From NCBI RefSeq assembly GCF_020510565.1, contig NZ_CP075189.1:1720501-1784500 (forward strand): a stretch of DNA of 64,000 nt, in the 5' to 3' direction. This stretch comes from Ferribacterium limneticum (lineage in GTDB: Bacteria > Pseudomonadota > Gammaproteobacteria > Burkholderiales > Rhodocyclaceae). Each line of letters starts with the position of its first letter. Positions within the stretch are counted from its first letter, which is position 1. Both the position numbers and the translations under genes were made by a program. Shown in pieces: positions 5,284-63,151 of this stretch. The notes under the pieces are model-generated. The model was given only the letters and a program-made list of their open reading frames with translations. It did no database searches and was not told the origin of the DNA.

Positions 5284-5323
5284 GATTTCATTTTTGGCCA
5301 TTTTTTCCGGTTGACCGTAGCAA
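5284..5323 (+). repeat. Dispersed 40-bp repeat, copy 1
   Basis: Intergenic copy in plus orientation, with 5' half GATTTCATTTTTGGCC and 3' core TTCCGGTTGACCGTAGCAA. It lies 36 bases beyond the stop of the outer membrane factor gene and directly beside the hairpin at 5260-5283. Confidence 0.95.
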
Positions 5324-5358
5324 GCCCGGTTGAGCTTGCTGATGGGGGGACGACGGAA

Positions 5359-6771
5359 TCAGCCGGCGACCCAGCCGCCGCCCAATGCCTTGAACAGATC
5401 GACTGCCGCGCCGAGGCGGCTCTTGCGACTGGCCAGATATTGCAACTGGGCGCTGTTCAGCGTGCGCTGGGCGTCGAGCAGATCCATGTAGCCGGAATAG
5501 CCGGACTCGTAACGCTTCTCGGCCAGATTGAGCGCCTTTTGCGAGGAACCGACCTGGGCCGAGTAGGCGGCCTCTTCTTCGCTGTATTCGCGCAGGCCGA
5601 CGATGGCGTCGTTCACTTCCTTGAAGGCGGTTTGCACCGTTTTCCGGTAGTTGGCCAGGCTTTCCTTCTGCACGGCCGTCGCCTGATCGACCCGGGCGCC
5701 GGTGCGGCCGGCGTCGAAGATCGGCATGGCGAGGCCGGCGGCGGCTGACCAGATGCCGGCGCCGCTGGTGAACAGATTGGATAGCGCCATGCTTTCGCTG
5801 CCGAACAGGCCGGTCAGGCTGATCGTCGGGTAGTAGGCGGCCTTGGCGACACCGATTCGGGCGTTGGCGGCAACCAGCTTTTCCTCAGCTTGGCGGATGT
5901 CCGGGCGGGCTTCGAGCAGGGCCGAGGGCAGCCCGGCCGGCGGGGTTGGCGGCAACGGCAGCTTGTCGAGGCCGGTGGCGGCGATCTTGAGGCCGGGCTG
6001 GCCGCTGAGCAGGCCGATCTGGCTTTCGGACAGGGCGCGCAGCCGTTGCAACTGGCTCCATTGGGCTTGCGCGCCGTTCAGCGCGCTTTCGGCCTGGGCC
6101 AGTTCGAGGCCGGAGGCGCTGCCGGCATCGAGCCGGGCCTGGACGATTTTGAGCGCCTGCTTGCGAGATTCGAGCGTTTGCGCCGTGACTTCGATCTGGC
6201 CATCGAGGCTGCGCAGGTTGAGGTACTCGTTGGTCACCTGGCCGACCAGCGTCAGGCGCAAGCTGTCGCGGCCGAAACGGCTGGCCAGCGCTTCTGCACG
6301 CACCGCTTCGTTGTTGCGCCGAATGCGGCCCCAGAGGTCGAGCTCGTAGCTCAGTGTCGCGGCAACCCGGTTGTTATCGTAGGTGGCGCCACCCATTTTT
6401 CGGCCGTTGTAGGTTTCGCCACTACTCTTGCTGCGCCCGGTGCTGGCTTCCAGACCGATGCGCGGCAGGTAATCGGCGCCGGCTTCGCGGGCTGCCGCTT
6501 CAGCCGCTTCGAGGCGGGCGATGGCGGCTTGCAGGTCCTGGTTGGCGGCCAGTGTCTGGTCGACCAGCGCATTGAGGTCGGCGTCGCCGAACAGCGTCCA
6601 CCACGTCGGATTGACCGGCACTTGAGCCGTGGCGACGGCCGGCGCCGCTTCCGGCAGGGTCGAAGCCGGGCGGAAGTAGTCCGGGCCGATGGCGCAGCCG
6701 CTCAGGGCGATTGCCACGGTCAACCCGAAAAATGGGCCAAATTTGAAACGTTTCGGGAGCAGGGAATGCAT
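5359..6771 (-). CDS. RND efflux outer membrane factor (OprM/NodT family lipoprotein)
   Basis: This is the outer-membrane channel of the tripartite pump encoded with the two genes upstream (470 residues, usual family length). The precursor has a lipoprotein signal with lipobox LSGC at residue 26, then GPDYFRP and two long TolC-type coiled-coil repeats (NQDLQAAIARLEAAEAAA; ARLDAGSASGLELAQAE). The ATG at 6771 is one base after the stop of the inner membrane pump, so translation is probably coupled; a longer frame upstream overlaps the pump and is rejected. Bases 6711-6750, covering residues 9-20 of the signal peptide (FKFGPFFGLTVA), are a sense-strand copy of the dispersed 40-bp repeat. Confidence 0.95.
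   Translation of the reverse strand: MHSLLPKRFKFGPFFGLTVAIALSGCAIGPDYFRPASTLPEAAPAVATAQVPVNPTWWTLFGDADLNALVDQTLAANQDLQAAIARLEAAEAAAREAGADYLPRIGLEASTGRSKSSGETYNGRKMGGATYDNNRVAATLSYELDLWGRIRRNNEAVRAEALASRFGRDSLRLTLVGQVTNEYLNLRSLDGQIEVTAQTLESRKQALKIVQARLDAGSASGLELAQAESALNGAQAQWSQLQRLRALSESQIGLLSGQPGLKIAATGLDKLPLPPTPPAGLPSALLEARPDIRQAEEKLVAANARIGVAKAAYYPTISLTGLFGSESMALSNLFTSGAGIWSAAAGLAMPIFDAGRTGARVDQATAVQKESLANYRKTVQTAFKEVNDAIVGLREYSEEEAAYSAQVGSSQKALNLAEKRYESGYSGYMDLLDAQRTLNSAQLQYLASRKSRLGAAVDLFKALGGGWVAG
6711..6750 (-). repeat. Dispersed 40-bp repeat, copy 2 (inside a signal peptide)
   Basis: Copy in minus orientation, in the sense direction of the outer membrane factor gene. It reads TTTCAAATTTGGCCC then CGGGTTGACCGTGGCAA. 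It encodes most of the hydrophobic core of the lipoprotein signal peptide. Confidence 0.85.
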
Positions 6772-6772
6772 C

Positions 6773-9700
6773 TTATTTTTCCTCCGACTGGTGGTCGTCT
6801 GCGTCGCCGGCCGGCAGCATCTGCTTGCCGCGCTCCAGCCACTTGAAGAAGAGCGGGATGAAAATGGTGGCAATGAAGGTCGCCGCGATCATGCCGGCAA
6901 AAACGCCGGTACCCATCGACTGCCGGGCCGCCGCGCCGGCCCCGGTGGCCTTGACGAGCGGGAAGACGCCGAGCACGAAGGCCAGCGAGGTCATGACGAT
7001 GGGGCGCAGACGCAAACGGGCGGCTTCCATCGCGGCATCGACCACGTTCATGCCTTCAGCGTACTTCTGGGCGGCGAACTCGACGATCAGGATGGCGTTT
7101 TTCGACGCCAGACCAATGAGCACGACGAGGCCGATCTGGAAGTAGATGTCGTTCGGCATGCCGCGCAGCCAGATCGCCGTCAGGGCGCCCATCAACGCGA
7201 AGGGCACGGCCATGACGACGGCCAGCGGCAGCGACCATTTTTCATACTGGGCGGCGAGGATCAGGAAGACCATGATGATGGCGAAGACGAAAGCCTGCAT
7301 CGACGAGCCGGAACTGCGCTTTTCCTGGAAGGCCTGGCCGGTCCAGGAGATTTCGAAGCCGCTGGGCAGGGTGGCTGCCGCAACTTCCTCGACAATCTTG
7401 ATGGCATCGCCCGAGCTGATCCCCGGCTTGCTGTCGCCCATCACCTTGGCGGCGACGAAGCCGTTGAAGCGCTCGACCTGTTCCGGACCGACGACGTTCT
7501 TGACCTTGCTGATCGCCGACAGCGGGATCATGGCATTGGTCGTCGAACTGCGCACATAGACCTTGCCGAGATCTTCCGGCTTGGTCCGGTAGTTGGCCTC
7601 GGCTTGTAGCTGGACGCGATAGACCCGGCCGGACTTGTTGAAGTCATTGACGTACAGGGCGCCCATCGTGCTCTGCAGGGTTTCGTAGATGTGGGCAAGC
7701 GGGATGCCGAGCGCCAGCGCCTTCGGCTCGTCGACTTCGACGAACAGTTGCGGCACGGTCGGCCGGAAGAAGGTGCTGATGCGCGTGAATTCCGGGTGCT
7801 TTTGCAGTTCGGCGATGAACAGCTGGGTGACTTCATTGAGCTTTCGGGTGTCGCCATCGAGGCGGTTCTGCAAATACACCTCGAAACCGCCGGCAGTGCC
7901 CAGGCCCATGATCGGCGGCGGGTTGAAAACGAGCGCCATGCCATCCGCCTGCATCATGCCCATGCCCATGAACTTGCCGGCCAGATCCTGCGCCTTGCCC
8001 TGGCGTTCGCTCCAGTCCTTGAGCGGAATGAAGATGGTGCCGGCGTTCGGCTTGCTGCCGCCGCCGATCAGGTCGAAACCGGACACGACGAAGGTGTGCT
8101 TGACCGCCTCGTCGTGGCTCAGCATCTGGCGCATGTTCTCGCCGGTAGCGGCCGTCCGCTTGAGCGTCGCGCCGTCCGGCAGCATGAGGGCCGAAATCAG
8201 GTAGCCCTGGTCTTCAGCCGGCACGAAACTGCCCGGCAGGGTGCGGAAGAAGAAGACAGTGATGCCGATGACCAGCGCGAAAATCAGGCCGCCGACGATG
8301 CCGTGCTTGAGCGTGAAGCCGACCGTCGTCGTGTAGGAGCGGGTGAATTTCTCGAACAGCCGGTTAAAAGGGCGGAAAAGCTTGTGCTCGGTGTGCTGCG
8401 CCTTGAGCAGCAGGGCGCACAGCGCCGGCGTCAAGGTCAGCGCGACGACACCGGAAAGCACCACGGAGACGGCGACGGTCACGGCGAACTGCTTGTAAAG
8501 CTGGCCGGCAATGCCGCCTAGGAAGGCGACCGGGACGAAGACCGAGACCAGCACGAGCACGATGGCGATCAGCGCGCCCTGAACCTGCTGCATGGCCTTG
8601 ATCGCCGCATCCTTGGGCGACAGCTTTTCTTCGGCCATCAGGCGCTCGACGTTCTCGAGCACGACGATGGCGTCATCGACGACGATGCCGATGGCCAGCA
8701 CCATGGCAAACAGCGTCAGGGTGTTGATCGAGAAACCGAACAGCCACAGGCCGGCGAAGGTGCCGATCAGCGAAATCGGCACGGCGACCATCGGAATCAG
8801 GGTAGCGCGCCAGCTTTGCAGGAAGATATAGACAACAGCCAGCACCAGAATCATGGCTTCAATCAGCGTCTTGACCACTTCATTGATCGAGGCGGAAACG
8901 AAGCGCGTCGTGTCGAAGGGGATGACGTAGCCCATGCCTTCCGGGAACTTCTTCTTGAGCTCGTCCATTTTTTGACGCACTTTTTCGGCCACTTCCAGCG
9001 CGTTGGCGCCGGTCTGCAGGAAAACGCCCATGGCGATGGTCGGCTGGCCGTCCAGCGTCACGCTCTGCTCGTAGCTGTAGGCGCCAAGCTCGATGCGGGC
9101 GACGTCCTTGAGGCGCAGGGTGCCACTTGGGCCGCTGGCTCTGATGACGATGTTGCCGAATTCCTCCGGCGTCAGCAGGCGGCCCTTGGCGGTCACCGTG
9201 TAGACCAGTTGCTGGTCGCTCGGCGCCGGCTCCTGGCCGATCTTGCCGGCCGCGTTCTGGGCATTCTGGGCCTTGATAGCGGTCGAAATGTCGTTGGTCG
9301 TCAGGCCCAGTTGCGCCATGCGATCCGGCTTGAGCCAGACGCGCATCGAGTAATCCTGGGCGCCGAAGATGGTCACGTCGCCGACACCCTTGACCCGCTT
9401 CAACTCGTCGGCGATGTTCAGGCTGGCGTAGTTGGACAGGAAGAGGGTGCTGTACTTGCCCTTTTCGGACTCCAGGGCGACGACCTGCAGAATGTCGTTG
9501 GAGCGTTTCTGGACGAGCACACCGTTGGTCCGTACTTCGGCCGGCAAGCGCGGTTCGGCCGCTTTTACCCGGTTATTGACGTTGACCGCAGCGATGTCGA
9601 CATTGCTGCCGACATCGAAGGTTGCAGTGATGGTGACGACGCCGTTGGCGGCCGCCGACGAGGTGAAGTAGGAGAGGTTTTCGACCCCGTTCAACTGTTC

Positions 9701-13891: not shown

Positions 13892-15229
13892 TTACCTTGC
13901 CCGGTCGAGGTCGGCCCGGTTTTTCTCGTCGACGTAAATGCCCGTTTCGCCCGGCCGGCTGCTGGCGAAGCAGCTGATTTCGACGTTGGCCAGCGCCTTG
14001 GCCTTGTGCAGCACGTCCACGGCGCAACGGCCGAAAACGCTGTCGATGGTGGCGAGCAGGTTGCGGGCGTAGGGCGTTTCCAGTTTGCCATCGAGAATCA
14101 GGTTGGCGAGCAGCACGCCGTCCGGCTTGAGCACGCGGCGCGTGCTGGCCCAGAATTCGCGGGTGACGAGGTGGCTGGGAATCGAGGTGTGTGAGCTGTA
14201 GACATCGACGACGACGGCATCGAAGCGGCGCTCACTGGTCGCCACGAAACGGCGGGCATCGTCGGCGATGAATTCGCCGCGGGCCGGTTCGCGCAGGAAA
14301 TACTTTTCGGCGATGTCGCGGATCGCCGGGTCGATATCGACGTAGGTGTAGCGGTTGAGCGGTTCGTGGTGCGACAGCGTGAAGCCGCCGGCGCCGAGGA
14401 CGAGGATGTCCTTGCCCGTGAAGCCGAGGTCGTCGAGCAGGATCTGGCGCAGGTGTTTGATGTAACGCGTGTAGTTGGGCGGGTATGAATTGTCGATGAG
14501 CGAGGCGGTGGACTTGTTGACCCAAAAGGCGCGCGGGTTATTTTGGCCCGGGAGATCGACGGCGCCGATGACATATTCGGCGTAGGCCGTGTCGGCCGTG
14601 ACGTCGTGCTGCAGGTTGAAGCCGGCAGCCATTGCCACGGTCAACCCGGAAAAAAGCCAAGATTTGAAATCTTTCCCGGCCAGCAGCAGGGTGCCGATGA
14701 GCAGACCCAGCGCGCAGGCGAAGACGGCGGCCGAAACGCCGAGCCACTGCATGACGATGAGCGAAAGGCTGATCGAACCGAGGAAGGAACCGAGGGTGGA
14801 CCAGTAGAGCGCCAGGCCGCTTGCCTCGCCGGTGCGTTCGGCTTTCATGAGGTTGGTCAGGATTGGCACGGTCTGGCCGAGCAGCCAGGCCAGCGGGCAA
14901 AGCACGCCGCCGATGAAGACGAGGTAGGCGACGAGCACCGGCTGCAGGTGGGCGAACATCCAGTCCACGCTGATACCGGCCAGCCCGATGCCGGCCAGCG
15001 CGGCGGCGATCAGGAAATTGCGGGCGACGATGTTGAGGTAGTTGCCGGCGACCCTGGCGCCCGAGGCGTAACCGAGCGCCAGCGCGAGCAGGAAGAAGCC
15101 GATGGTCGGCGCCGTGACGACGATGGAGCTGCCGATGTGCGGCACCAGCCGGCGCAGCGCGATGACTTCGGCGCCGAGCGAGCAGAAGCCTTCGATGAAG
15201 ACGATGGCGTAGATCAGGAAACGGGACAT
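13892..15229 (-). CDS. Membrane-anchored spermidine-synthase-like protein
   Basis: This 445-residue fusion has six or seven hydrophobic helices in the first 200 residues (FIEGFCSLGAEVIALRRLVP at the start) followed by a SAM-binding spermidine-synthase fold. The latter is recognised by DILVLGAGGFTLSHH, YVDIDPAIRDIAEKYF, FIADDARRFV and FDAVVVDVYSSHTSIPSHLVT. Whether it makes a polyamine or aminopropylates something else is unknown. The next gene in the same direction is a CNNM protein resembling the polyamine exporter PaeA. Bases 14632-14671 (residues about 186-199, DFKSWLFSGLTVAM) are a sense copy of the dispersed 40-bp repeat and form the last membrane helix. Confidence 0.88.
   Translation of the reverse strand: MSRFLIYAIVFIEGFCSLGAEVIALRRLVPHIGSSIVVTAPTIGFFLLALALGYASGARVAGNYLNIVARNFLIAAALAGIGLAGISVDWMFAHLQPVLVAYLVFIGGVLCPLAWLLGQTVPILTNLMKAERTGEASGLALYWSTLGSFLGSISLSLIVMQWLGVSAAVFACALGLLIGTLLLAGKDFKSWLFSGLTVAMAAGFNLQHDVTADTAYAEYVIGAVDLPGQNNPRAFWVNKSTASLIDNSYPPNYTRYIKHLRQILLDDLGFTGKDILVLGAGGFTLSHHEPLNRYTYVDIDPAIRDIAEKYFLREPARGEFIADDARRFVATSERRFDAVVVDVYSSHTSIPSHLVTREFWASTRRVLKPDGVLLANLILDGKLETPYARNLLATIDSVFGRCAVDVLHKAKALANVEISCFASSRPGETGIYVDEKNRADLDRAR
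14632..14671 (-). repeat. Dispersed 40-bp repeat, copy 3 (inside a membrane helix)
   Basis: Copy in minus orientation, sense to the spermidine-synthase-like gene. It reads GATTTCAAATCTTGGC then TCCGGGTTGACCGTGGCAA. It is translated in the same frame as copy 2 (F-K-x-x-x-F-x-G-L-T-V-A). Confidence 0.8.
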
Positions 15230-19842: not shown

Positions 19843-19900
19843 GATTTCATTTTTGGCCGTTTTTTACGTTTCACGTAGTAAACCGGGTTGACCGTGGCAG
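19843..19900 (+). repeat. Dispersed 40-bp repeat, copy 4, split by a 17-base insert
   Basis: The left half GATTTCATTTTTGGCC plus GTTTTTT and the right half CCGGGTTGACCGTGGCAG match the repeat, but about 17 bases (ACGTTTCACGTAGTAAA) separate them. It begins five bases after the stop of the 104-residue gene. Confidence 0.85.
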
Positions 19901-19960
19901 GTGCGCAATGTCGCGCCTGACGCCAACGAAAAAGAATTACTGCCGTCGGGTAGTCGAGCA

Positions 19961-23614: not shown

Positions 23615-23653
23615 TATTTCAAAATTGGGCAAAATTTCCGGTTGACCGTGGGA
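23615..23653 (+). repeat. Dispersed 40-bp repeat, copy 5
   Basis: Plus orientation: TATTTCAAAATTGGGC then AATTTCCGGTTGACCGTGGG. It lies between the DUF1415 start and the DUF4124 stop, 32 bases from the latter. Confidence 0.92.
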
Positions 23654-23685
23654 TTCGGGAAAAACCTGGCCGTGAATTTGTCCGG

Positions 23686-28334: not shown

Positions 28335-28361
28335 AAAACGCCTCCGGGTCGGAGGCGTTTT
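28335..28361. terminator. Intrinsic terminator of cysDN
   Basis: AACGCCTCC pairs with GGAGGCGTT around a short loop, with A tracts before and T tracts after, so it can act in both directions. It lies about 37 bases beyond the cysN stop in the minus direction; repeat copy 6 sits between stop and hairpin. Confidence 0.8.
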
Positions 28362-28395
28362 CAATTTTGGCCGATATTTCCGGTTGACCGTGGGA
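28357..28395 (+). repeat. Dispersed 40-bp repeat, copy 6
   Basis: Plus orientation: GTTTTCAATTTTGGCC then ATTTCCGGTTGACCGTGGGA. It ends two bases from the cysN stop codon and abuts the terminator hairpin, so it is transcribed in the cysDN 3' UTR. Confidence 0.95.
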
Positions 28396-28397
28396 GG

Positions 28398-31295: not shown

Positions 31296-31347
31296 CGGAT
31301 GCTGAAAATTTCAAATTTGGCAAAAATTTCCGGTTGACCGTAATAAC
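31258..31347 (+). repeat. sodC tail plus repeat: left copy of a 90-base direct repeat
   Basis: The sequence coding KRIACGVIAAR, then the 40-bp repeat, recurs at 31978-32069. The coding part differs by only a few bases; the spacer between the sodC part and the 40-bp repeat differs more. Confidence 0.85.
31307..31346 (+). repeat. Dispersed 40-bp repeat, copy 7
   Basis: Plus orientation: AATTTCAAATTTGGC then AATTTCCGGTTGACCGTAAT. It starts 11 bases after the sodC stop. Confidence 0.92.
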
Positions 31348-31977: not shown

Positions 31978-32069
31978 AGGGGAAAACGCATCGCCTGCGG
32001 CGTGATCGCAGCGCGCTGGGCATCGCCAGGATTTCATTTTTGGCCAAAATTTCCGGTTGACCGTGGCAA
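31978..32069 (+). repeat. sodC tail plus repeat: right copy of a 90-base direct repeat
   Basis: Bases 31984-32020 would encode KRIACGVIAARW, a remnant of a sodC 3' end, followed by repeat copy 8. No upstream sodC sequence remains next to it. Confidence 0.85.
32030..32069 (+). repeat. Dispersed 40-bp repeat, copy 8
   Basis: Plus orientation and close to consensus: GATTTCATTTTTGGCC then AATTTCCGGTTGACCGTGGC. Its left half forms the palindrome TTTTGGCCAAAA. It lies 18 bases from the stop of the OmpA-like lipoprotein gene. Confidence 0.95.
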
Positions 32070-37851: not shown

Positions 37852-37891
37852 GATTTCAATTTCGGCCAAATTTTCCGGTTGACCGTAGCAA
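37852..37891 (+). repeat. Dispersed 40-bp repeat, copy 9
   Basis: Plus orientation: GATTTCAATTTCGGCC then TTTTCCGGTTGACCGTAGCA. It lies 26 bases from the stop of the secreted protein that ends the cytochrome operon. Confidence 0.95.
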
Positions 37892-39945: not shown

Positions 39946-41463
39946 TCAGAATGTCTTGAGGAACTCGACCAGCGCGGCTTTCTCGCCGGAGCTCAGTTCG
40001 GTGCCGTAGGCCTTGCCCTCGTGGCCGCCGTTGCCGTTGCCAGGCACGGTGGTGTCGAGGCGGAAGAATTTCTTGCCGCCGGCTTCGCTGATGTTCGAGA
40101 CGAAACCGACTTTCTCCGGGTCATAGACGTCGTTGCCGCGGTAGAAGGCTTTCGGGCGTTTGGCGGCCGGTTCGAGGAGGTCGCGCAGACTGGGCACCGA
40201 GCCGTTGTGCAGGTAGGGGGCGCGCAGCCACAGACCGTCGAGCGGCATGTTGGCGTAGCCGTGGGTTTTCTGGAAATGCGTGAAGCGCCACGGGTAGCCG
40301 GCATAAAGCGTGGCCTGGTTTACTGCCAGCGTGTAGGTGTAGGAGTCCAGCCGGCGGCGGTCGGTGCCGATTTTGGCCAGCGGCTCGACGGTGCCGACGT
40401 ACTGGCCGCTGAAGTCGCTGCCCGAGGCGCCGTGGCAGGCCGCACAGTATTTTTGGTAGATCGGCGCGCCTTGGGCGGCAATGCCACGGTCAACCGGAAA
40501 AAATGCCGAAAATTGAAGTGGCTCGACATCCATGATCCACGCTTCGACGCGCTTGATGCGTTCGATGTCGATGGTCGGCGGCGTCGTGCCGGTGCCGAAG
40601 GCGGCGCTCTTGTTGCGCTCCTCGACGGTGGTGTTGTTGCCGTCCCAGTGCAGCTGCATTTCCTTCGGCTCCATGCGCTGACGCTGGCGCCAGATCGACG
40701 GGAAGTCGGCCGGGGCGTCGAATTCCTTCGGGTCGAGCAAATGCATCGGCCAGTTGAAAATGACCTTGGCCGAATTGAAGGTATCGACCCGGCCCGGCCC
40801 CCATTCGTGCTGCTTGAAGACCCAGTCGAAACGCCCGGCCAGCGCGAGAACGCGGTCGCGCATGATGGCGATGGCGATGGGGTAGACGAGGTAGCGGTCG
40901 AGCAGGTCGAGGTTGGCGCCCTGTTTCTCGATCTCGGGCAGGATGTATTCCTTCGAGAACTTCGGATCGGCGGCGCAGCGGAAGAAGAACTCCTCGAAGG
41001 CCTTCATGTTGAAGGTGGCGGCCGGCATGCCGAGGACGATGGTGGCCGGCTTGTCGGCCGCGGTACGCACGGTGCTGACATGGCAGACGGCGCAATTGAC
41101 GAAAACGCGGTCAATGCCCTGGAAACGCCGCTGCGAGGTGCCGACCGGCAGATCGCGGTCGCTGCCGTCGGGGTTTTTCTCATAGACCATGCCGAGCGAT
41201 TGGTAGCCCTTGCCCGGCAGGTATTGCGTGCAGACCTCGGGCAGCGCCTTCCAGATCCAGTAGGGAAAGCCCATCTCATGCTCGCCGCCGGTCGAGCCGT
41301 ATTTAAAATGCTCGGTCGGGCTGGCGTAGTCGACCGGAATGTCCTCGCCGAAGCGCTTGAGGAGCAGCAGGCCGATGAAGCCGGGGATGATGACGGTGAG
41401 TGTGAAGAGAATCAGGAAGCGGCGCTTCCAGGGGCTGGGGGTCTGTTCGAGTTCTTCGTTCAT
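39946..41463 (-). CDS. Diheme c-type cytochrome (RoxA/CcpA-like), paralogue 2
   Basis: This 505-residue protein has an N-terminal membrane helix (RRFLILFTLTVIIPGFIGLLLL), heme motifs CAVCH near residue 122 and CAACH near 341, and the same GLWLRAPYLHNGSVPSLRDLLEP C-terminal signature as paralogue 1. It ends 11 bases before paralogue 1 starts. Bases 40480-40518 (residues about 316-328, LQFSAFFPVDRGIA) are a sense copy of the dispersed 40-bp repeat, in a different reading frame from the other translated copies, just before the second heme motif. Confidence 0.87.
   Translation of the reverse strand: MNEELEQTPSPWKRRFLILFTLTVIIPGFIGLLLLKRFGEDIPVDYASPTEHFKYGSTGGEHEMGFPYWIWKALPEVCTQYLPGKGYQSLGMVYEKNPDGSDRDLPVGTSQRRFQGIDRVFVNCAVCHVSTVRTAADKPATIVLGMPAATFNMKAFEEFFFRCAADPKFSKEYILPEIEKQGANLDLLDRYLVYPIAIAIMRDRVLALAGRFDWVFKQHEWGPGRVDTFNSAKVIFNWPMHLLDPKEFDAPADFPSIWRQRQRMEPKEMQLHWDGNNTTVEERNKSAAFGTGTTPPTIDIERIKRVEAWIMDVEPLQFSAFFPVDRGIAAQGAPIYQKYCAACHGASGSDFSGQYVGTVEPLAKIGTDRRRLDSYTYTLAVNQATLYAGYPWRFTHFQKTHGYANMPLDGLWLRAPYLHNGSVPSLRDLLEPAAKRPKAFYRGNDVYDPEKVGFVSNISEAGGKKFFRLDTTVPGNGNGGHEGKAYGTELSSGEKAALVEFLKTF
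40480..40518 (-). repeat. Dispersed 40-bp repeat, copy 10 (inside a cytochrome gene)
   Basis: Minus orientation, sense to the gene: CTTCAATTTTCGGCA then TTTTCCGGTTGACCGTGGCA. It is translated as FPVDRG, one frame away from copies 2 and 3. Confidence 0.85.
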
Positions 41464-41640: not shown

Positions 41641-43814
41641 TAGCGTTTCATGCGATTGCCCTGTGGCGTGGGCAGGCAGGGGCGCAGGGCTTCGTAGCCA
41701 CCGGCCAGCATTTCGTTGAGGTTGGGCGGACGGCCATTTTCAGCGCGCAGCCAGTCGCTGACTTGTGCTAACAGGGTCTTGCGGGCGGCGCTATTGCGCC
41801 AGCGGTCGCTGTTGGTGGCGAAGGCCGGGAGCATGCTTTCCGGCGGCATCGGCGTCTTGTCGCGCTGTTCCGGTGCCAGATCGGCCATGGCCAGCCGGAC
41901 GTAAAGGCGCGGCGCGCACTGGCGCAGACGGGCTGCCACCTGCGCGCCGTTGCCGCTCAGGAAATTGGGCGGGAAGGTTTCGGCTGTCTGGTGGCAGGTG
42001 GCGCAGTAGGGGTAGAAGGCCTGCAATGTCGGTTCGACCGGGGCGTTTACGAGGTTGCCCAGCGCTGCCGATGGCACTTCCAGGCGCGGTGCGGGCAGGT
42101 TCTGCGCGGGTTGGCAGCAAGGCTTGGCAACTGGAGCGCCGAGTTCGGTGAGTAGCGCGGCCAGCAGGTTTTCCCGGGGGATGGCTTGGGGGGCGAACAA
42201 GACCTCACCTGGCGGGCCGTCGGCCAGCCGCGTCAGGGCGCGCTCGATGGCGGCGAAATCCTGGCGGATATCGAGCACCACCTCGCCCACGGCGGGATCG
42301 CTGGCGCTGCGGCGGAGCACCAGGCGGCCAAGCACATGGCCCTCGGCGCTGCGCGGGCTTTGCTGCCCGAGACGCAGGGTGAAGCTCGCAGTGTTTACCG
42401 TCGCCGGGCCGCTTGGCACCAGATCGAGATTGCTCAGGGCGGTGCCGCCGGGCAGGGTGAGGCGGGTTAGTTGTCCGCTGCTCGGCCGGCTGGCCGTCAG
42501 GTTAATGGTGCCGGCCAGGCTTGGTCCGGTGTTCGACGCGCAATTCACCGACCAGCGCGAGGCCGGCGCGTTGGTGCTGATCCGGCAGGGGGCGCTCAGT
42601 TGGGTCGTGGCGATGTCGGGGAGCCGGGCCAGGGCAGCCTCGATCTGGCGGCGCTCGGGCGCTGAAACGAATTCGGCCAGGCCGGTGATCAGCGTGCCGA
42701 GGGCACCCGGTGCTTCGGTTTGCCAGATTTCCCGAGGCGGGCGTGGCGTCAGGGGCTCGAAGCGGGCCGCGACGTGGGAGTGGGCGATGCGGGCAGCCGG
42801 CTCGGTGGGCCATTCAGCCAAGTTCTGCAACGGGTTGCGGTTGGGGATGTCGGGGTTGCCGACGGCCAGCCCGCCGGGCCAGCGGCGGCGGGATTCGCGG
42901 CGTAGCGGTTCCACTACCGTCTGGCTGAAATCCGCATCCGGCGTCCAGTTCTGTCCACCGGACAGGGCATGGCGTAGTGCGGCGGTGAACAATCCGGCCC
43001 GGCAGCGTCGGGCGGGCACGTCGTTCTCACCGCAGCCTTCGCGCCACAGCTTCTGGCTCAGGGCGAAGCCGTTGGCGCGCTCGGTGGCGTTGTCGATGGC
43101 GTAGGGAATGTCGATGCCACGGTCGACCGGGATGCCGTAGAAGCGTTTGCCGCTGGCAGCGAGCAGCGCGGCAACCTGCGGATTGGCATTGGTTTCATCC
43201 CACAGGGCGCGCGAGAAAATGGGCGAGCCGTTCTGGTGGCAGGCGAAACAGAGGTTGCGGTTGGCGTAGAAGACCTGCGGCTGACCACCCGCCCGGTAGT
43301 CCTTGACGAGTTGGAATTCGAAACGGCCAGCCGCTTCGTTGTAGCTGATGACTTCGAGGACGGCCGATTTTTCCTGATAGCCGAGGTAGAGGCGGTCTTT
43401 CAGGAAGAATTTCGAACTCGGGCCATTTTCCGAGTCGACCGTGACAACGACGCGCGGGAAGGCGAAATGGTCCGGCGCAGCCGCTGTCCGTTGCAGCGAG
43501 CGGCCGAGCGGAATGAGGACGCGCTTGGCCGGCGGCAGGGCGCTACCGGGGTCAGGTATAAGCTGAGCATCAAGGCGGGCGAGCAGGGCGGTGAATGGGA
43601 AGGGCAGTTCGATGGCACTCTGGCCATTGCGTGCCACGGCAAAAAGCTGGTCGAACAGCGAGCGACCGACAGGTGGCAAATCTTCGCCGGGCACAGCCGG
43701 GTCGACGACCCAAGCCGGTGCCGGGCGGGTGGTTTCAGCCGCCGCCCACATCACCGCTCCCGGTCCGCAGGCCAAGCCGATCAGGCCGGCCAGCAGGGCG
43801 TTGCGCAGGTTCAT
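41586..43814 (-). CDS. Large diheme c-type cytochrome, secreted
   Basis: This 742-residue exported protein has a signal peptide (NALLAGLIGLACGPGAVMWA) and two widely spaced heme motifs, CFACH near residue 188 and CATCH near 601. The middle contains a putative beta-rich domain (LTASRPSSGQLTRLTLPGG; VNTASFTLRLGQQS). Hallmarks of RoxA-like proteins such as the LHNGSVP motif are not seen, so the subfamily is uncertain. GGAAG precedes the ATG at 43814. The last 15 or so residues (YSLPFKGRVGVGMG) are coded by the right arm of the inverted repeat at 41533-41640, which suggests the original stop was lost. Confidence 0.8.
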   Translation of the reverse strand: MNLRNALLAGLIGLACGPGAVMWAAAETTRPAPAWVVDPAVPGEDLPPVGRSLFDQLFAVARNGQSAIELPFPFTALLARLDAQLIPDPGSALPPAKRVLIPLGRSLQRTAAAPDHFAFPRVVVTVDSENGPSSKFFLKDRLYLGYQEKSAVLEVISYNEAAGRFEFQLVKDYRAGGQPQVFYANRNLCFACHQNGSPIFSRALWDETNANPQVAALLAASGKRFYGIPVDRGIDIPYAIDNATERANGFALSQKLWREGCGENDVPARRCRAGLFTAALRHALSGGQNWTPDADFSQTVVEPLRRESRRRWPGGLAVGNPDIPNRNPLQNLAEWPTEPAARIAHSHVAARFEPLTPRPPREIWQTEAPGALGTLITGLAEFVSAPERRQIEAALARLPDIATTQLSAPCRISTNAPASRWSVNCASNTGPSLAGTINLTASRPSSGQLTRLTLPGGTALSNLDLVPSGPATVNTASFTLRLGQQSPRSAEGHVLGRLVLRRSASDPAVGEVVLDIRQDFAAIERALTRLADGPPGEVLFAPQAIPRENLLAALLTELGAPVAKPCCQPAQNLPAPRLEVPSAALGNLVNAPVEPTLQAFYPYCATCHQTAETFPPNFLSGNGAQVAARLRQCAPRLYVRLAMADLAPEQRDKTPMPPESMLPAFATNSDRWRNSAARKTLLAQVSDWLRAENGRPPNLNEMLAGGYEALRPCLPTPQGNRMKRYSLPFKGRVGVGMGHYKP

Positions 43815-49050: not shown

Positions 49051-49089
49051 TTTTTGATATTTCGCCAATTTTTCCGGTTGACCGTGGAA
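49051..49089 (+). repeat. Dispersed 40-bp repeat, copy 11
   Basis: Plus orientation: TTTTTGATATTTCGCC then TTTTTCCGGTTGACCGTGGA. Its left half is diverged. It lies ten bases from the fumC stop. Confidence 0.88.
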
Positions 49090-49098
49090 GTCGATTTC

Positions 49099-55441: not shown

Positions 55442-55482
55442 ATTGCCACGGTCAACCGGAAATACTGGCCAATTTTGAAATC
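55442..55482 (-). repeat. Dispersed 40-bp repeat, copy 13
   Basis: Minus orientation: GATTTCAAAATTGGCC then TTTCCGGTTGACCGTGGCAA. It is the only intergenic copy pointing this way. Its first bases overlap the TGA stop of the LysR gene. Confidence 0.95.
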
Positions 55483-58144: not shown

Positions 58145-59089
58145 GTGGAAATCTCCCAGCTCAGCGAAGCACTTCAGCGTGACGCCGTCTGGGTCGTTTT
58201 CCTCAACGTCCTGCTGCAACAGATCGGGCTGCCGGTGCCGGCCGTTCCGACGCTGCTCCTGGCCGGTAGCCTGATCGTCGGCTCGGGGCAGTTCGCCAGC
58301 GTTCTGGCCGCCGCCATCGTCGCCTCGGTACTCGCTGACTGGGTCTGGTATCTGGCCGGCCGGGCATTTGGCTATCGCGTGCTCGCCGGCCTGTGCAAGC
58401 TGTCGATCAACCCTGCTTCCTGCGTCAGCCAGACTGAGTCCCGCTTTGTCCGCTGGGGGCTCGGCTCCTTGGTCTTTGCCAAATTCATTCCCGGTTTTTC
58501 GACGGTGGCGCCACCCATCGCCGGCTCTCTACGCATGCGGCTGCCCGGTTTCCTGCTCGCCGCCGCCACCGGGGCCGCATTGTGGGCCGGGCTGGCTTTG
58601 GGCGCCGGCTGGCTGTTGCGCAACGAAGTCAGCGCAGCCATCGCTGCACTGGACCAGCACACAGGGAGCGCACTTGTCCTTCTCGCCGCCATGATTTCAC
58701 TCTGGCTGGGCTGGAAACTCTGGCAGAAATACCGCTTCCGGCAATTGTCGGCCGTGCCGCACATCACGCCGCTTGAATTGATTGCCGCGATGGAGGGCGA
58801 GCAACCGCCGCTGGTCCTCGACCTGCGCGGTCAGAGCATGATCGCTGAAACCGGGCCGATTGCCGGCGCGACGGTGGCGGAGCATGACCTGCTGCTCGAT
58901 GCCGTCGGCGAATGGCCGAAAGATAGGCCCATCGTCACCCTGTGCGCCTGCCCGGAAGATGCCGGGGCGATTCAGGCGGCGCGCCGCTTGCTCGACGCCG
59001 GCTACATCTCCGTCCGGCCCCTGAAAGGCGGCTATGAAGCCTGGCTGGCGAGTGCCCTGGAGAAAGGGATGCTAACGTCAGGTGTATGA
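58145..59089 (+). CDS. DedA-family membrane protein fused to a rhodanese-like domain
   Basis: This 314-residue protein has about five helices of the DedA/SNARE-associated family in residues 1-195 (LLQQIGLPVPAVPTLLLAGSLI; FAKFIPGFSTVAPPIAGSLRM) and a C-terminal rhodanese-like domain (HITPLELIAAMEGEQPPLVLDLRG; active-site loop CACPEDAGAIQAARRLLDAGY). The loop Cys suggests sulfur transfer may be retained. DedA proteins are lipid or ion flippase-like. Start is GTG 58145 with AAGGTGA upstream. It may be the third gene after azoR-pirin. Confidence 0.9.
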   Translation: MEISQLSEALQRDAVWVVFLNVLLQQIGLPVPAVPTLLLAGSLIVGSGQFASVLAAAIVASVLADWVWYLAGRAFGYRVLAGLCKLSINPASCVSQTESRFVRWGLGSLVFAKFIPGFSTVAPPIAGSLRMRLPGFLLAAATGAALWAGLALGAGWLLRNEVSAAIAALDQHTGSALVLLAAMISLWLGWKLWQKYRFRQLSAVPHITPLELIAAMEGEQPPLVLDLRGQSMIAETGPIAGATVAEHDLLLDAVGEWPKDRPIVTLCACPEDAGAIQAARRLLDAGYISVRPLKGGYEAWLASALEKGMLTSGV

Positions 59090-59157
59090 CGTTAGCCTGA
59101 TTGCGCCAGCGTTGTCGCGAGGAGAAAATGCAGGTTTCATAATCAGAGGAGCCAGCC

Positions 59158-59391
59158 ATGAGCAACGAGCGCAGAGGACGCCCGGAGAGACGCGGCCGTG
59201 ACATCGGCCCGCCCAGCGGTTGTTTTGACCGGCGGCGAACGGTTGAGCGCCGACTCCCCGAAGCCGCGGAAGCCGAGTTGTCGGCCGATGACTTCGCAAA
59301 ATTTTTCGGCTCGGTGAACAAAGCAACCGGCAATACCGATCAACTCGATCTGGCTGCCGAGGTTTTCGAGCGGGCTCGCGGCCGTTATTAG
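59158..59391 (+). CDS. Small Arg-rich protein, unknown
   Basis: This 77-residue protein begins MSNERRGRPERRGRDIGPPSG with repeated RR/ERR motifs (DRRRTVERR) and has an acidic helical second half (ELSADDFAKFFGSVNKATG). No family is recognised; the ERR/DRR style recurs in the 110-residue protein at 31630. AGAGGAG precedes the ATG at 59158. The stop overlaps the convergent cusA stop by four bases. Confidence 0.65.
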   Translation: MSNERRGRPERRGRDIGPPSGCFDRRRTVERRLPEAAEAELSADDFAKFFGSVNKATGNTDQLDLAAEVFERARGRY

Positions 59392-62300
59392 GTGCTTAGC
59401 CTTTGCTGGCGATGTTTGACCAGCGCGTAGATCGCCGGAATGACGGCCAGGGTCAGGATGGTTGAAGAAATCATGCCGCCGACCATCGGGGCGGCGATGC
59501 GGCTCATCACTTCCGAGCCGGTGCCGGTCCCCCACAGGATGGGCAGCAGGCCGGCCATGATGGCGGTGACCGTCATCATCTTCGGGCGGACGCGTTCGAC
59601 GGCGCCTTCCATGACCGCGGCGTAGAGGTCGGAAGCCTGCGGGCTACGGCCTTCCGCGGCACATTTTTGTTGCACTGCCGTCCATGCGTGGTCGAGGTAG
59701 ATCAGCATGACGACGCCGGTTTCGGCGGCCACGCCGGCCAGCGCGATGAAGCCGATGGCCGCGGCGACCGACAGGTTGTAGCCGAGCAGCCACATCAGCC
59801 AGATGCCGCCGACCAGCGCGAAGGGCACGGAGAGCATGACGATGAGCGTTTCGGTGATGCGCCGGAAGTTGAGGTAGAGGAGCAGGAAGATGATGAGCAA
59901 CGTCACCGGCACGACGACTTTCAGTTTCTCGATGGCGCGCTCCATGTACTCGAACTGGCCGCTCCAGGTGACGTAGGTGCCGGGTGTGAATTTGACCTTT
60001 TCATTGACTGCCTTGCGGGCTTCGGCGACGTAGGAACCGATGTCGCGGTCGCGGATATCGACGTAGATGTAGGCCGAGAGCAGGGCGTTTTCGGTGCGGA
60101 TGGCCGGGGCGCCGGTGCTGATCTTGATCTCGGCAACCTGGCCGAGCGGGATCATGGTCGCCGGGGCGCCCATTTCGGCCGGTACCGGAACGAGCACTTC
60201 GCGGGCGATGGCTTGCGGGTCGCTGCGCAGGTCGCGCGGGTAGCGGACGGTGACGCCGAAGCGCTCGCGGCCTTCGACCGTGGTGGTGACCATTTCGCCA
60301 CCGAGGGCGGCAGCGACGACATCCATCACCTCGCCGACGCTCAGCCCGTAGCGGGCCAGGGCGATGCGGTCGGGCACGATGTCGAGGTAAAAGCCGCCGG
60401 TAATCCGTTCGGCGAAGGCGCTGCTGGTGCCGGGCACAGCCTTGACGACGCTTTCGATTTCCTTGGCCAGGCGTTCCATTTCGACGAGGTCGGTGCCGAA
60501 AACCTTGATGCCGATGGGGGTGCGGATGCCGGTGGACAGCATGTCGATGCGCGCCTTGATCGGCATCGTCCACGAATTGGCGACGCCGGGGAATTGCAGC
60601 GCCTTGTCGAGTTCGGCGATCAGTTTGTCGGTGGTCAGGCCGGGGCGCCATTCCGATTCCGGCTTGAGGTTGATGACCGTCTCGAACATTTCCATCGGCG
60701 CCGGGTCGGTGGCGGTCTGGGCGCGCCCGGCTTTGCCGAATACCGAGGCGACTTCCGGGAAACTCTTGATGATCTTGTTTTGCGTCTGCAGTAACTCGGC
60801 CGCCTTGGTCACCGACAGGCCGGGCAGGGTGGTCGGCATGTAGAACAGCGTGCCTTCATTGAGTGTCGGCATGAATTCGCTGCCCAACCGGCTGGCCGGG
60901 ATGATGCTGACGGCCATGGCGATCAGGGCGAGGGTGATGGTCGTTTTCTTCCAGTTCATGACGGCGGCGATGATCGGGCGGTAAATCCGGATCAGGAAAC
61001 GATTGACCGGGTTTTCGGCTTCCGGGCGGATGTGGCCGCGGATGAACAGCAGCATCAGCACCGGCACCAGCGTCACCGACAGGAAGGCGGCGGCCGCCAT
61101 GGCGAAGGTCTTGGTCCAGGCGAGTGGGGCAAACAGTCGGCCTTCCTGGGCTTCGAGCGTGAAGACGGGGAGGAAGGAGACGGTGATGATGAGCAGGCTG
61201 AAGAAGAGGGCGGGGCCGACTTCCTTGCAGGCCGCGATTATCGCCTCGCTGCGCGACTCTCCCGGTTGCAGGCGTTCGAGATGCTTGTGCGCATTCTCAA
61301 TCATCACAATCGCCGCATCGATCATCGCCCCAACGGCAATCGCAATCCCCCCCAAACTCATGATGTTCGAATTGATGCCGAGCGCCCGCATGCCGATGAA
61401 GGCTGCCAGGATGCCAACCGGCAGCATGATGATGGCGACCAGCGCCGAGCGCAGGTGGAGCAGGAAGACGATGCAGACCAGCGCGACGATCAGGCTTTCT
61501 TCGGCCAGCGTGCGCTTGAGCGTGGCGATGGCGCGCTCGATCAGTTCGGAGCGGTCATAGACGGTCTGGATGCTGACGCCCTCGGGGAGCCCGGCGCTGA
61601 CTTCGGCGATCTTGGTCTTGACGTTGTGGATGACATCCAGCGCGTTCTGGCCGAAGCGTGACATGACGATGCCGGAAACGACTTCACCTTCGCCGTTCAA
61701 CTCGGTGATGCCGCGCCGCTCGTCGGCTACCAGCTCGACCCGGCCGATATCGGCGACGCGGACCGGCGTGCCGTTCTGCGCCTTTAAGACCAGATTCTCG
61801 ATGTCGCCCTTGCCGCGCAGATAGCCGCGGCCACGCACCATGTATTCGGTTTCGGCCATTTCCAGCGTGCGGCCACCGACGTCGCGGTTCGAATTGCGGA
61901 TCACCTCGGCGACGCGCATGAGCGGGATGCCGTAGGTTTTCAGCTTGATTGGGTCGACCGTGACCTGATACTGCTGCACGAAGCCGCCGATGCTGGCCAC
62001 CTCGGCGACGCCGGGCGCTTTCGCCAGCTGGTAGCGCAGATACCAGTCCTGTAGGGTGCGCAGTTCGGCCAGCGTCTTGTCCTTGGCCAGCACGGCGTAC
62101 TGGTAGACCCAGCCGACGCCGGTGGCATCCGGGCCGAGGGTTGGGCTCACTCCTTTGGGCAGCTTGCCGGAGACGGAATTGACGTATTCCAGCACGCGCG
62201 AGCGCGCCCAGTAGATGTCGGTACCGTCTTCGAAGATGACATAGACGAAAGATGCGCCGAAGAAGGAGAAGCCGCGGACTACCTTGGATTTCGGCACGGA

Positions 62301-62522
62301 GAGCAGGGCGGTGGTCAGCGGGTAGGTGACCTGATCCTCGACGACCTGCGGCGCCTGGCCGGGGAATTCGGTGTACAGGATGACCTGGACGTCGGAAAGG
62401 TCGGGGATGGCGTCGAGGGGGGTTTTGAGGACCGACCAGATGCCGGCTATTACGATGAATAGCGTTGCCAGCAGGACGAGGAAGCGGTTTCTGGCTGACC
62501 AGTTGATGAGGGCATTAAGCAT
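59388..62522 (-). CDS. cusA: Copper/silver RND efflux pump CusA/CzcA type
   Basis: This 1044-residue heavy-metal RND antiporter has the CusA-like start LINWSARNRFLVLLATLFIV, GATGVGWVYQY-type motif (GPDATGVGWVYQYAVL), the fourth-helix GAMIDAAIVMIENAHKHLE with a single aspartate as in HME pumps, and the Cus-type segments DPAPMEMFETVINLKPESEW and WTMPIKARIDMLSTGIRTP. The methionines there are consistent with copper or silver. The upstream adaptor carries a CusF-like domain, which supports the metal. cusA starts 645 bases after the adaptor stop because a palindromic element lies between. Confidence 0.93.
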   Translation of the reverse strand: MLNALINWSARNRFLVLLATLFIVIAGIWSVLKTPLDAIPDLSDVQVILYTEFPGQAPQVVEDQVTYPLTTALLSVPKSKVVRGFSFFGASFVYVIFEDGTDIYWARSRVLEYVNSVSGKLPKGVSPTLGPDATGVGWVYQYAVLAKDKTLAELRTLQDWYLRYQLAKAPGVAEVASIGGFVQQYQVTVDPIKLKTYGIPLMRVAEVIRNSNRDVGGRTLEMAETEYMVRGRGYLRGKGDIENLVLKAQNGTPVRVADIGRVELVADERRGITELNGEGEVVSGIVMSRFGQNALDVIHNVKTKIAEVSAGLPEGVSIQTVYDRSELIERAIATLKRTLAEESLIVALVCIVFLLHLRSALVAIIMLPVGILAAFIGMRALGINSNIMSLGGIAIAVGAMIDAAIVMIENAHKHLERLQPGESRSEAIIAACKEVGPALFFSLLIITVSFLPVFTLEAQEGRLFAPLAWTKTFAMAAAAFLSVTLVPVLMLLFIRGHIRPEAENPVNRFLIRIYRPIIAAVMNWKKTTITLALIAMAVSIIPASRLGSEFMPTLNEGTLFYMPTTLPGLSVTKAAELLQTQNKIIKSFPEVASVFGKAGRAQTATDPAPMEMFETVINLKPESEWRPGLTTDKLIAELDKALQFPGVANSWTMPIKARIDMLSTGIRTPIGIKVFGTDLVEMERLAKEIESVVKAVPGTSSAFAERITGGFYLDIVPDRIALARYGLSVGEVMDVVAAALGGEMVTTTVEGRERFGVTVRYPRDLRSDPQAIAREVLVPVPAEMGAPATMIPLGQVAEIKISTGAPAIRTENALLSAYIYVDIRDRDIGSYVAEARKAVNEKVKFTPGTYVTWSGQFEYMERAIEKLKVVVPVTLLIIFLLLYLNFRRITETLIVMLSVPFALVGGIWLMWLLGYNLSVAAAIGFIALAGVAAETGVVMLIYLDHAWTAVQQKCAAEGRSPQASDLYAAVMEGAVERVRPKMMTVTAIMAGLLPILWGTGTGSEVMSRIAAPMVGGMISSTILTLAVIPAIYALVKHRQQRLST

Positions 62523-62542
62523 GGGAGCGGCCCTCTTCGGTC

Positions 62543-62566
62543 ATTCCTGCGGAAGCGGGAATCCAG
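62543..62566. repeat. Short palindrome of the ATTCC...GGGAAT (dRS3-like) kind
   Basis: ATTCCTGCGGAAGCGGGAAT plus CCAG resembles the Neisseria dRS3/NIME type of extragenic repeats and similar betaproteobacterial elements. It lies 20 bases upstream of the cusA start. Confidence 0.6.
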
Positions 62567-62601
62567 GGGGGTCTTGTTTTGCTGTGGGTTCCGGCTAATT
62601 G

Positions 62602-63151
62602 GCTTGGGGTTCCGCCCTTGCGGGGCGTCTCACTTTTTCTTGCTTCGCCAAGAAAAAGTAAGCAAAAAGAAGGCGACCCTGGGTCGGTGCCGGCTGCGCC
62701 GGTTCCCTGCGCTACTCGGAAGGCCGGGCGGCTGCGGAACTCGGGGCTGCGCCCCTCAAACAGTCCTCGCCGAACGCCCCCGGCATTCCTGCGTTGCTCG
62801 GCACCTCTCAAGGGGCCCGGTGAAACGATCCGTCGTTGAGCTTGGGTGCCTGAATGGCAGATTTTATTTTTGGCTGTTTTTTCCGGTTGACCGTGGAAAC
62901 CAATTCTTCCCGAAAAAACGGTCGAGCATAGACGCCTTTGGGGTCCCCGTGGAAGGCGCTGAGCAACGCAGGCTGGCCGGGGGCAGTCGGCTTGCGTTGT
63001 CTGAGCCGCAGGCGAGTTTAGCAAGCCGCCCGGTCTGCCGAGTAGCGCAAGGAACCCGCAGGGCGCCGCCCCCGGGGTCGCCTTTTCTTTGGCTACTTTC
63101 TTTTGGCGAAGCAAAAGAAAGTACGCCCGCCAGCAAGGCGGAAACCCAAGC
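62602..63151. repeat. Large inverted repeat (about 550 bases) in the cus operon
   Basis: The arms, about 220 bases each (62602-62830 and 62935-63151), are imperfect complements. Matching blocks include CTTCGCCAAGAAAAAGTA with its counterpart TACTTTCTTTTGGCGAAG, CGCTACTCGG with CCGAGTAGCG, and CCTGCGTTGCTC with GAGCAACGCAGG. No transposase is encoded. Confidence 0.85.
62860..62899 (+). repeat. Dispersed 40-bp repeat, copy 14
   Basis: Plus orientation: GATTTTATTTTTGGCT then TTTTCCGGTTGACCGTGGAA. It lies in the loop of the large inverted repeat and is the only intergenic copy far from any stop codon. Confidence 0.93.

What the first reader, a model, noticed from the sequence alone, without database searches (positions are those of the whole stretch)
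5284..62899. A 40-bp dispersed repeat with 14 copies in 64 kb and a strong orientation bias
The consensus is GATTTCAATTTTGGCC, two variable A/T bases, then TTTCCGGTTGACCGTGGCAA. It holds two dyads (TTTTGGCCAAAA in the best copies, and CGGT-TG-ACCG). Copies: 5284, 6711(-), 14632(-), 19843, 23615, 28357, 31307, 32030, 37852, 40480(-), 49051, 53608, 55442(-), 62860. Of 11 intergenic copies, 10 point in the plus direction although flanking genes lie on both strands, so transcription does not explain the bias. Ten of the 11 are within about 35 bases of a stop codon. A polar, dense, 3'-end-placed sequence suggests a chromosome-organising, replication-polarised or protein-binding element rather than an ordinary REP.
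Basis: seen in the sequence. Interest (0 to 1): 0.9.

Follow-up and report, generated by a model that had tools for sequence, protein, structure and literature searches.

The report
Possible DNA-uptake signal in Dechloromonas/Azonexus
A 40-letter DNA motif repeated about 750 times in this bacterium looks and evolves like the 'self' tags that a few bacteria use to recognise their own DNA before taking it up, and its relatives carry different 'dialects' of it.

Summary
The repeat is real but far larger than the window: 757 copies in the genome (375 +, 382 -) against 8 for the reversed pattern. The orientation bias is local; no replichore polarity was found. The element is a near-invariant core, GTTGACCGTRG, preceded by AT tracts about one helical turn apart. 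About half of 232 sampled copies lie between genes, densest between convergent genes; the rest lie in genes, in preferred frames. Between two species the core hardly changes while flanks drift. The genic copies that could be tested look born by substitution, not insertion (13 of 100). No Y1 transposase was found. In the family the motif is abundant only in one genus (Azonexus/Dechloromonas, inferred), in at least three dialects sharing GTYGACCG; 38 of 76 genomes are rich in one or more. Uptake sequences (USS of Pasteurellaceae, DUS of Neisseriaceae) have much the same profile. A new family of uptake signals is the likeliest reading (0.65). Against: no uptake assay, no receptor, and comEC and ComP-like pilins do not discriminate. 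A cultured relative, D. denitrificans, seems to carry dialect C, so it is testable.

The parts
5284..5323 (+). copy, intergenic, about 36 bp from the stop of a minus-strand gene
6711..6750 (-). copy inside a gene, encoding part of a signal-peptide-like start (KRFKFGPFFGLTVAI); ungapped weaker match (5 mismatches) in G218
14632..14671 (-). copy inside a gene; present in G195 and G218
19843..19902 (+). variant copy: about 20 bp (ACGTTTCACGTAGTAAAC) between the T tract and the core
23615..23654 (+). copy, intergenic; conserved in G195
28357..28396 (+). copy, intergenic, abutting a terminator-like stem; present in G195, G207, G196 and G165
31307..31346 (+). copy, intergenic, about 12 bp after a stop codon; near-identical in G171
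32030..32069 (+). copy, intergenic; present in G195, G171 and G181
37852..37891 (+). copy, intergenic
40480..40520 (-). copy inside a gene (frame ...FFPVDRG); in G195, and with ungapped substitutions (4 mismatches) in G218
43114..43154 (-). weak match inside a gene, no AT arm; possibly chance
49051..49090 (+). copy, intergenic, about 9 bp from a stop codon
53608..53647 (+). copy between convergent genes
55442..55482 (-). copy, intergenic, abutting a stop codon; present in G195
62860..62899 (+). copy in the middle of a larger inverted repeat (62597-63152) that recurs elsewhere in the genome

Best explanation
The element is most likely a DNA-uptake signal sequence: a tag that lets the competence machinery (type IV pilus, outer-membrane pore, ComEC) prefer the DNA of its own kind. 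Shown here: a near-invariant core, GTTGACCGTRG, next to AT tracts about one helical turn apart; about 750 dispersed copies on both strands without polarity; enrichment at gene 3' ends; many intragenic copies in preferred frames; origin by substitution for the genic copies that could be tested; strong conservation of the core; scarcity in low-GC DNA; abundance in one genus only, within the family; and dialects with a shared inner core. Inferred: a surface DNA receptor, probably a minor pilin, binds the core; the AT tracts help bend or melt the DNA as it is pulled in; biased uptake plus recombination spreads and maintains the copies. Changes of receptor specificity would give the dialects, and loss of uptake the motif-poor species.
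For: 757 copies vs 8 for the reversed pattern. Balanced strands in both arms. Logo of 173 copies: core positions 6-14 nearly invariant, AT tracts upstream at about 10-11 bp spacing (the copies were picked by up to 3 mismatches to a 17-mer, which favours core conservation, not the arm outside it). A 40-position matrix finds 226-251 sites in 1.23 Mb and 0 in reversed sequence. 120 of 232 classed copies are intergenic though intergenic DNA is 14.9% (p = 3e-39); densest between convergent, sparsest between divergent genes. Frame skew 37/26/18/9/7/3 of 100 (p = 1e-9). Ten low-GC 20-kb bins average 1.7 copies, fifty others 4.24 (p = 1e-4). G000 vs G195: 49 of 55 mapped copies kept; over 53 of these sites the core differs at 1/198 (intergenic) and 8/270 (genic) positions, flanks at 10-17%. 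Gap test: 13 of 100 genic copies had motif-free homologues; no loss of 8 or more residues in 67 alignments, 9 of 13 copies with at least one ungapped homologue. Three dialects with shared GTYGACCG: A, B (G147 1055, G201 1100), C (G198 837, G062 574), with the distal AT tract at the same place in all three. Outside the genus, 109 genomes of 67 genera hold at most 87 matches (own genus 926 and 724). comEC in 71 of 76. Published USS traits match: AT-rich flanks, no orientation bias, origin by mutation, two types (PMC1626085; PMC12616744).
Against: Nothing I found shows transformation in this genus (listings only). No receptor identified: ComP_DUS (PF16732) is in 24 of 24 genus genomes tested but also in 65 of 71 genomes of the family, nearly all of other genera without the motif. 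comEC is also present in motif-poor genomes. 38 of 76 genus genomes reach 150 copies in none of the three scans. Density (about 180 per Mb) is below the roughly one per kb quoted for known uptake sequences. Inverted pairs are rare (2 in 236 copies). Spacing is more even than random in one block (CV 0.71, p = 0.002), not in the other (CV 1.04, p = 0.72). The gap test is narrow: 54 of 67 alignments belong to one copy; for the other 12 copies 9 of 13 alignments are ungapped, with gaps up to 4 residues, and gaps are more frequent in the segment (1.8% of columns) than in the flanks (0.8%). At DNA level 9 of 17 genic sites aligned to G112 with gaps, 8 without; all 11 intergenic comparisons were gapped, so their origin is unresolved. 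Doubled cores and a 20-bp insert variant recur, and at least six sampled copies sit in a larger dispersed repeat; point mutation alone does not explain these.
Confidence: 0.65

Rival explanations
1. Binding site of an intracellular, genus-specific DNA-binding protein (nucleoid-associated or global regulator), kept by selection at hundreds of sites; the dialects reflect coevolution of protein and site.
For: Partly palindromic core, with GGTCGACC in many B and C copies; strong core conservation; no sign of insertion in the testable genic copies.
Against: About half of the copies are inside genes, where the encoded segment is less conserved than its flanks (0.49 vs 0.78 identity over 13 alignments of 12 copies). 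No clear orientation relative to genes, and divergent, promoter-bearing regions are poorest. Many species of the genus lack it.
Confidence: 0.22
2. Mobile short repeat (REP/MITE-like) spread by a transposase.
For: Tandem doublets and the 20-bp insert variant at several loci; at least six copies in a larger dispersed repeat; one site absent from G195 together with its surroundings; gapped intergenic alignments.
Against: No Y1_Tnp match in the genome (the same search rings in 5 of 14 control genomes); other transposase families were not searched. Testable genic copies show no element-sized gap. Copies mostly stay in place between G000 and G195.
Confidence: 0.08
3. 3'-end RNA element or part of terminators.
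For: Many copies lie just after stop codons and some abut terminator-like stems; convergent regions are enriched.
Against: Orientation is neutral: 29 with and 37 against co-directional genes, 17 with and 26 against the nearest convergent gene; about half the copies are in genes, more often antisense (62 vs 38); no Rfam match in the window.
Confidence: 0.04
4. Replication- or segregation-polarised signal (KOPS-like).
For: 10 of 11 intergenic copies in the window point the same way.
Against: No bias between replichores.
Confidence: 0.01

Closest known systems
Uptake signal sequence (USS) of Pasteurellaceae, Hin and Apl types
   Same: Short core plus two downstream AT-rich segments about 12 positions apart, up to 32 nt in all; no significant orientation bias; copies in and between genes; origin by substitution; two types (PMC1626085 passages and section 7; PMC12616744 passages). 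Read in the other direction, this core contains CGGTCAA, as do the published extended USS consensuses, with the AT tracts on the same side (my comparison by eye; could be chance).
   Different: Core otherwise unlike (CCACGGTCAAC vs AAGTGCGGT/ACAAGCGGT); AT tracts sit farther from CGGTCAA; a third T tract; lower density; another class of bacteria; uptake untested.
DNA uptake sequence (DUS) of Neisseriaceae
   Same: Very many copies, dialects with an invariant inner core (CTG there, GTYGACCG here), frequent in permissive intergenic regions and also inside genes (PMC3630211 passages).
   Different: DUS is a continuous motif of up to about 13 nt without AT tracts (PMC12616744 and PMC1626085 passages) and often forms inverted pairs (PMC3630211); here 2 inverted pairs in 236 copies.
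REP/REPIN elements with RAYT transposases (features recalled; PMC3116915 and PMC2817692 seen in a search listing only)
   Same: Hundreds of short, dispersed copies, enriched between genes.
   Different: No Y1 transposase match here; about half the copies in genes, without element-sized insertion where testable.
HIP1 of cyanobacteria (recalled, from no call)
   Same: Over-represented, partly palindromic motif in a group of relatives.
   Different: A short palindrome without AT arms.

Membership tests
Uptake sequences (USS/DUS) | Hundreds or more copies of a short core, far above chance | tested here: met
   757 vs 8 control; 1055-1100 in two B genomes
Uptake sequences (USS/DUS) | No strand or replichore bias | tested here: met
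   375/382; Fisher p = 0.64
Uptake sequences (USS/DUS) | Copies arise by substitution, not insertion | tested here: met
   For genic copies only, 13 of 100 testable: no loss of 8+ residues, 9 of 13 with an ungapped motif-free homologue; at DNA level 8 of 17 ungapped vs G112. Intergenic: 11 of 11 gapped, unresolved
Uptake sequences (USS/DUS) | Dialects with invariant inner core among relatives | tested here: met
   logos
Uptake sequences (USS/DUS) | Depleted in foreign DNA | tested here: inconclusive
   Only low GC as a proxy: 1.7 vs 4.24 copies per 20 kb
Uptake sequences (USS/DUS) | Frequent inverted pairs acting as terminators (a DUS trait, not of every uptake sequence) | tested here: not met
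   2 inverted pairs in 236 dialect A copies. In the G147 sample 19 opposite-strand pairs among 77 GTYGACCG sites, inflated because CGGTCGACCG matches both strands
Uptake sequences (USS/DUS) | Competence machinery present | tested here: met
   comEC only: 71 of 76 genus genomes; it does not separate motif-rich from motif-poor
Uptake sequences (USS/DUS) | Cognate receptor (minor pilin) | tested here: inconclusive
   PF16732 in 24 of 24 genus genomes tested, but also in 65 of 71 of the family
Uptake sequences (USS/DUS) | Preferential uptake of tagged DNA | not testable with these tools
   needs an uptake assay
REP with RAYT | RAYT (Y1) transposase in the genome | tested here: not met
   0 matches to PF01797
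REP with RAYT | Copies as insertions | tested here: inconclusive
   not met for the 13 testable genic copies; intergenic copies unresolved
KOPS-like polar signals | Skewed between replichores | tested here: not met

The most novel reading that the evidence does not exclude
A further, independent invention of self-DNA recognition by uptake sequences, in Azonexus/Dechloromonas, outside the two families known for it, with at least three dialects and absence from many species inside a single genus, and an architecture (core plus helically phased AT tracts, even a shared CGGTCAA) that has converged on the Pasteurellaceae USS.
Probability: 0.58. Interest if true: 0.92.

Novelty: new variant of a known kind. 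Interest (0 to 1): 0.85.

Why it matters
PMC3630211 (2013; passage read) calls Neisseria and the Pasteurellaceae unique in requiring short uptake sequences. A third case would show that self-recognition evolves repeatedly, and a genus in which close species differ in dialect, or lack the motif, is a good place to study how receptor and tag change together. The genus includes wastewater polyphosphate-accumulating bacteria (PMC12455942, start of abstract in the listing); a tag would also suggest a way to transform them.

Tried and rejected
Replichore polarity: rejected. Transcription-linked orientation: in the window the copies seemed to read against the upstream gene; the larger sample gave 29 with and 37 against co-directional genes, so rejected. 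RAYT/REP: no Y1 transposase. A ComP_DUS pilin as decisive evidence: 24 of 24 looked strong, then 65 of 71 of the family had it, so dropped; my extraction of the pilin frames worked for 13 of 25 loci and was not used. comEC does not separate rich from poor genomes. A one-gene tree mixes rich and poor species and has 8 open forks of 19, so I make no claim on the number of gains and losses. Rfam: no match in the window. K-mer search for other motifs in 40 kb each of G112 and G202: only repeats of up to 4 copies of a 14-mer (G112) or 2 (G202), not followed. The listing jumps from 0.93 to 3.0 Mb; I take this as a cut listing, since the window itself holds perfect copies.

Rows dropped: 4 of 236 copies at stretch ends; 181 of 236 copies not mapped to the fetched 480 kb of G195; 2 of the 55 mapped sites, with more than 4 mismatches, before the divergence count, alignments not spanning the segment plus 8 residues, with flank identity under 0.5, or second hits of a genome, and 6 of 73 whose subject held a motif. 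In one search a 'kept' copy means a match of 3 or fewer mismatches in the aligned stretch, which for paired copies may be the neighbour.
Full report
What is there. The window lies at 1720501-1784500 of one 4150051-base contig, G000. Genome-wide the 17-mer TTTCCGGTTGACCGTGG with up to 3 mismatches occurs 375 times forward and 382 times reverse; the reversed pattern 4 and 4. A 40-position matrix built from 155 sampled copies finds 226 (score 24 or more) to 251 (12 or more) sites in 1.23 Mb and none in reversed sequence, which extrapolates to 760-844 per genome.

Orientation. The window bias (10 of 11 intergenic copies plus) is real but local. In the 40 sampled stretches GC skew turns from mostly positive to negative between about 2.37 and 2.49 Mb. 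Outside the window, arm 1 has 85+/81- and arm 2 26+/30- (p = 0.64). Relative to co-directional genes 29 copies read with and 37 against transcription; between convergent genes 17 with and 26 against the nearer gene. Neither replication nor transcription clearly orients the element.

Anatomy. In 173 sampled copies (chosen by up to 3 mismatches to the 17-mer, which favours the core) GTTGACCGT is nearly invariant (its third base 90%), then R, G. Upstream lie AT tracts at -3..2, -13..-9 and -18..-16 (numbering), separated by G+C blocks; beyond about 40 bp there is no clear conservation. The left arm, outside the selecting 17-mer, carries 22 bits and the 17-mer 30. The arm is present (score over 5) in 96% of copies with 0 or 1 mismatch, 82% with 2 and 56% with 3, against 0.07% of background positions. 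The core dyad is lopsided in G000.

Place. Of 236 copies in 1.23 Mb, 232 could be classed: 120 intergenic, 100 inside and 12 partly inside genes (my own gene caller). Intergenic DNA is 14.9%. Convergent regions hold 0.46 copies per region, co-directional 0.18-0.21, divergent 0.08. Inside genes the six frames hold 37, 26, 18, 9, 7 and 3 copies (p = 1e-9), and 62 of 100 are antisense (p = 0.02). Sense copies in one frame often encode a signal-peptide-like FGLTVA or FRLTVA (15 of 26 in the first fifth of the gene). Ten low-GC bins average 1.7 copies, fifty others 4.24. Spacing is more even than random in one block (CV 0.71, p = 0.002), not in the other (CV 1.04).

Evolution. Against the fetched 480 kb of G195 (about 90% identical), 55 of 236 copies could be mapped: 49 still have 3 or fewer mismatches, 4 more exactly 4, one maps to a poorly matching place, and one is gone together with its surroundings. 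Over 53 of these the strict core differs at 1/198 intergenic and 8/270 genic positions, flanks at 10-17%; sites were chosen for matching in G000, which favours conservation a little. Genic copies were tested as Redfield and others tested USS (PMC1626085, section 7 read): 13 of 100 had homologues without the motif in the sequence held. No alignment lost 8 or more residues and 9 of 13 copies had at least one ungapped homologue. But 54 of the 67 alignments belong to one copy (51 ungapped); the other 12 copies gave 13 alignments, 9 ungapped, gaps up to 4 residues, segment identity 0.49 against 0.78 in the flanks. Gaps were somewhat denser in the segment (1.8% of columns) than in flanks (0.8%). At DNA level 8 of 17 genic sites aligned to G112 without a gap and 9 with gaps; 3 of 5 genic sites in G218 were ungapped substitutions and 2 were present; 11 of 11 intergenic comparisons were gapped and cannot be judged.

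Distribution and dialects. In 76 genomes of the genus, the A motif, GTYGACCGTGR (B) and GTYGACCGCWG (C) were counted. By my hand count over the three tables, 38 of 76 genomes hold at least 150 copies of one or more of them; the reversed controls never exceed 42; the other 38 reach 150 in none. Examples: A in G000 757, G195 754, G181 753, G171 751; B in G147 1055 and G201 1100; C in G198 837, G211 603, G062 574. The patterns overlap (A copies ending GTGG or GTGA also count in B; G000 scores 163 in C), and several genomes are mixed (G218, G174, G184, G155, G188). B, from 51 sites, shows AT tracts at the same two distances from the core as A. C, from 18 sites in 121 kb of G062 with L264, shows the distal AT tract at the same place and only a weak proximal one. 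In the family outside the genus, 109 genomes of 67 genera hold at most 87 matches to GTYGACCGYDG, against 926 and 724 in the two genus members; a few exceed their own control several-fold at low counts (G055 43 vs 8, G103 78 vs 24). A stricter 15-mer was found in 5 non-genus genomes of 150 searched, once each. In 0.70 Mb of named loci of other genera the 17-mer occurs 6 times (control 3) and the B 11-mer not at all. Nothing beyond the family was searched systematically. The genus is Azonexus/Dechloromonas by named relatives: G062 has a 351015-base contig, equal in length to one of Dechloromonas denitrificans ATCC BAA-841, and G218 equals OU015322.1 in length; these identities are inferences from length.

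Machinery. comEC is found in 71 of 76 genomes (51 of 51 of good quality). ComP_DUS is in 24 of 24 tested genus genomes, but also in 65 of 71 of the family, so it says nothing specific. No Y1 transposase match in G000; other transposase families were not searched.

Interpretation. Strong consensus, AT-rich helically phased flanks, no orientation, preference for 3' intergenic space, frame-biased genic copies apparently born by substitution, scarcity in low-GC DNA, and dialects with a common inner core together resemble the published profile of uptake sequences (PMC1626085 passages and section 7; PMC12616744 passages; PMC3630211 passages; PMC2346458 abstract). Read in reverse complement, the core contains CGGTCAA followed by AT tracts; the published extended USS consensuses AAAGTGCGGTCAATTTT and AACAAGCGGTCAAATTT also contain CGGTCAA with AT tracts on that side. 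I noticed this by eye; it may be chance. An intracellular binding protein remains the main rival; only an assay can separate the two.

Not explained. Doubled cores with a constant 19-bp step, a 20-bp insert variant at 7 sampled sites, and copies in the middle of a dispersed inverted repeat of about 560 bp (5 of 5 paired elements in the G000 sample and 2 of 2 in G195; plus one half element) suggest that some copies are spread by copying. Motif-poor species with comEC exist without a clear reason.

Print. Searches of the held library listed no paper on such a repeat, or on uptake sequences in this genus, among the rows shown; I read only listings there, the listings were capped, and most subscription papers are not held.

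Noticed in passing
window 62597-63152; also G000 1657281-1657871, 1793459-1794015, 1802081-1802668, 1882544-1883099, half at 3613419-3613715: A dispersed inverted repeat of about 560 bp (arms with ACTTTCTTTTGGCGAAGCAAAAGAAAGT) with the uptake-like motif in its middle in the paired copies seen (5 of 5 in the G000 sample, 2 of 2 in G195).
   Followed up: partly
window 19843-19902 and six other sampled G000 sites: Variant copies with ACGTTTCACGTAGTAAA or close forms between T tract and core.
   Followed up: partly
G000 1609906, 1615056, 1644687 vs G195: Core doubled with a 19-bp step in one species and single in the other: gain or loss of a tandem unit.
   Followed up: partly
G202 C1 2218607-2251879 and G181 C33 109525-144033: The comEC match appears split by about 33 kb at the same point of the domain in two species, as if an element sits in the gene.
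   Followed up: no
L221 (G112 C1 1600001-1620000): Five motif matches in 11.4 kb, all on one strand, in an otherwise motif-poor genome; possibly an imported block (91% identity to G000 over 2.8 kb).
   Followed up: partly
G000 genic copies, e.g. window 6711-6750: Sense copies in one frame often encode part of a signal-peptide-like start (FGLTVA).
   Followed up: partly
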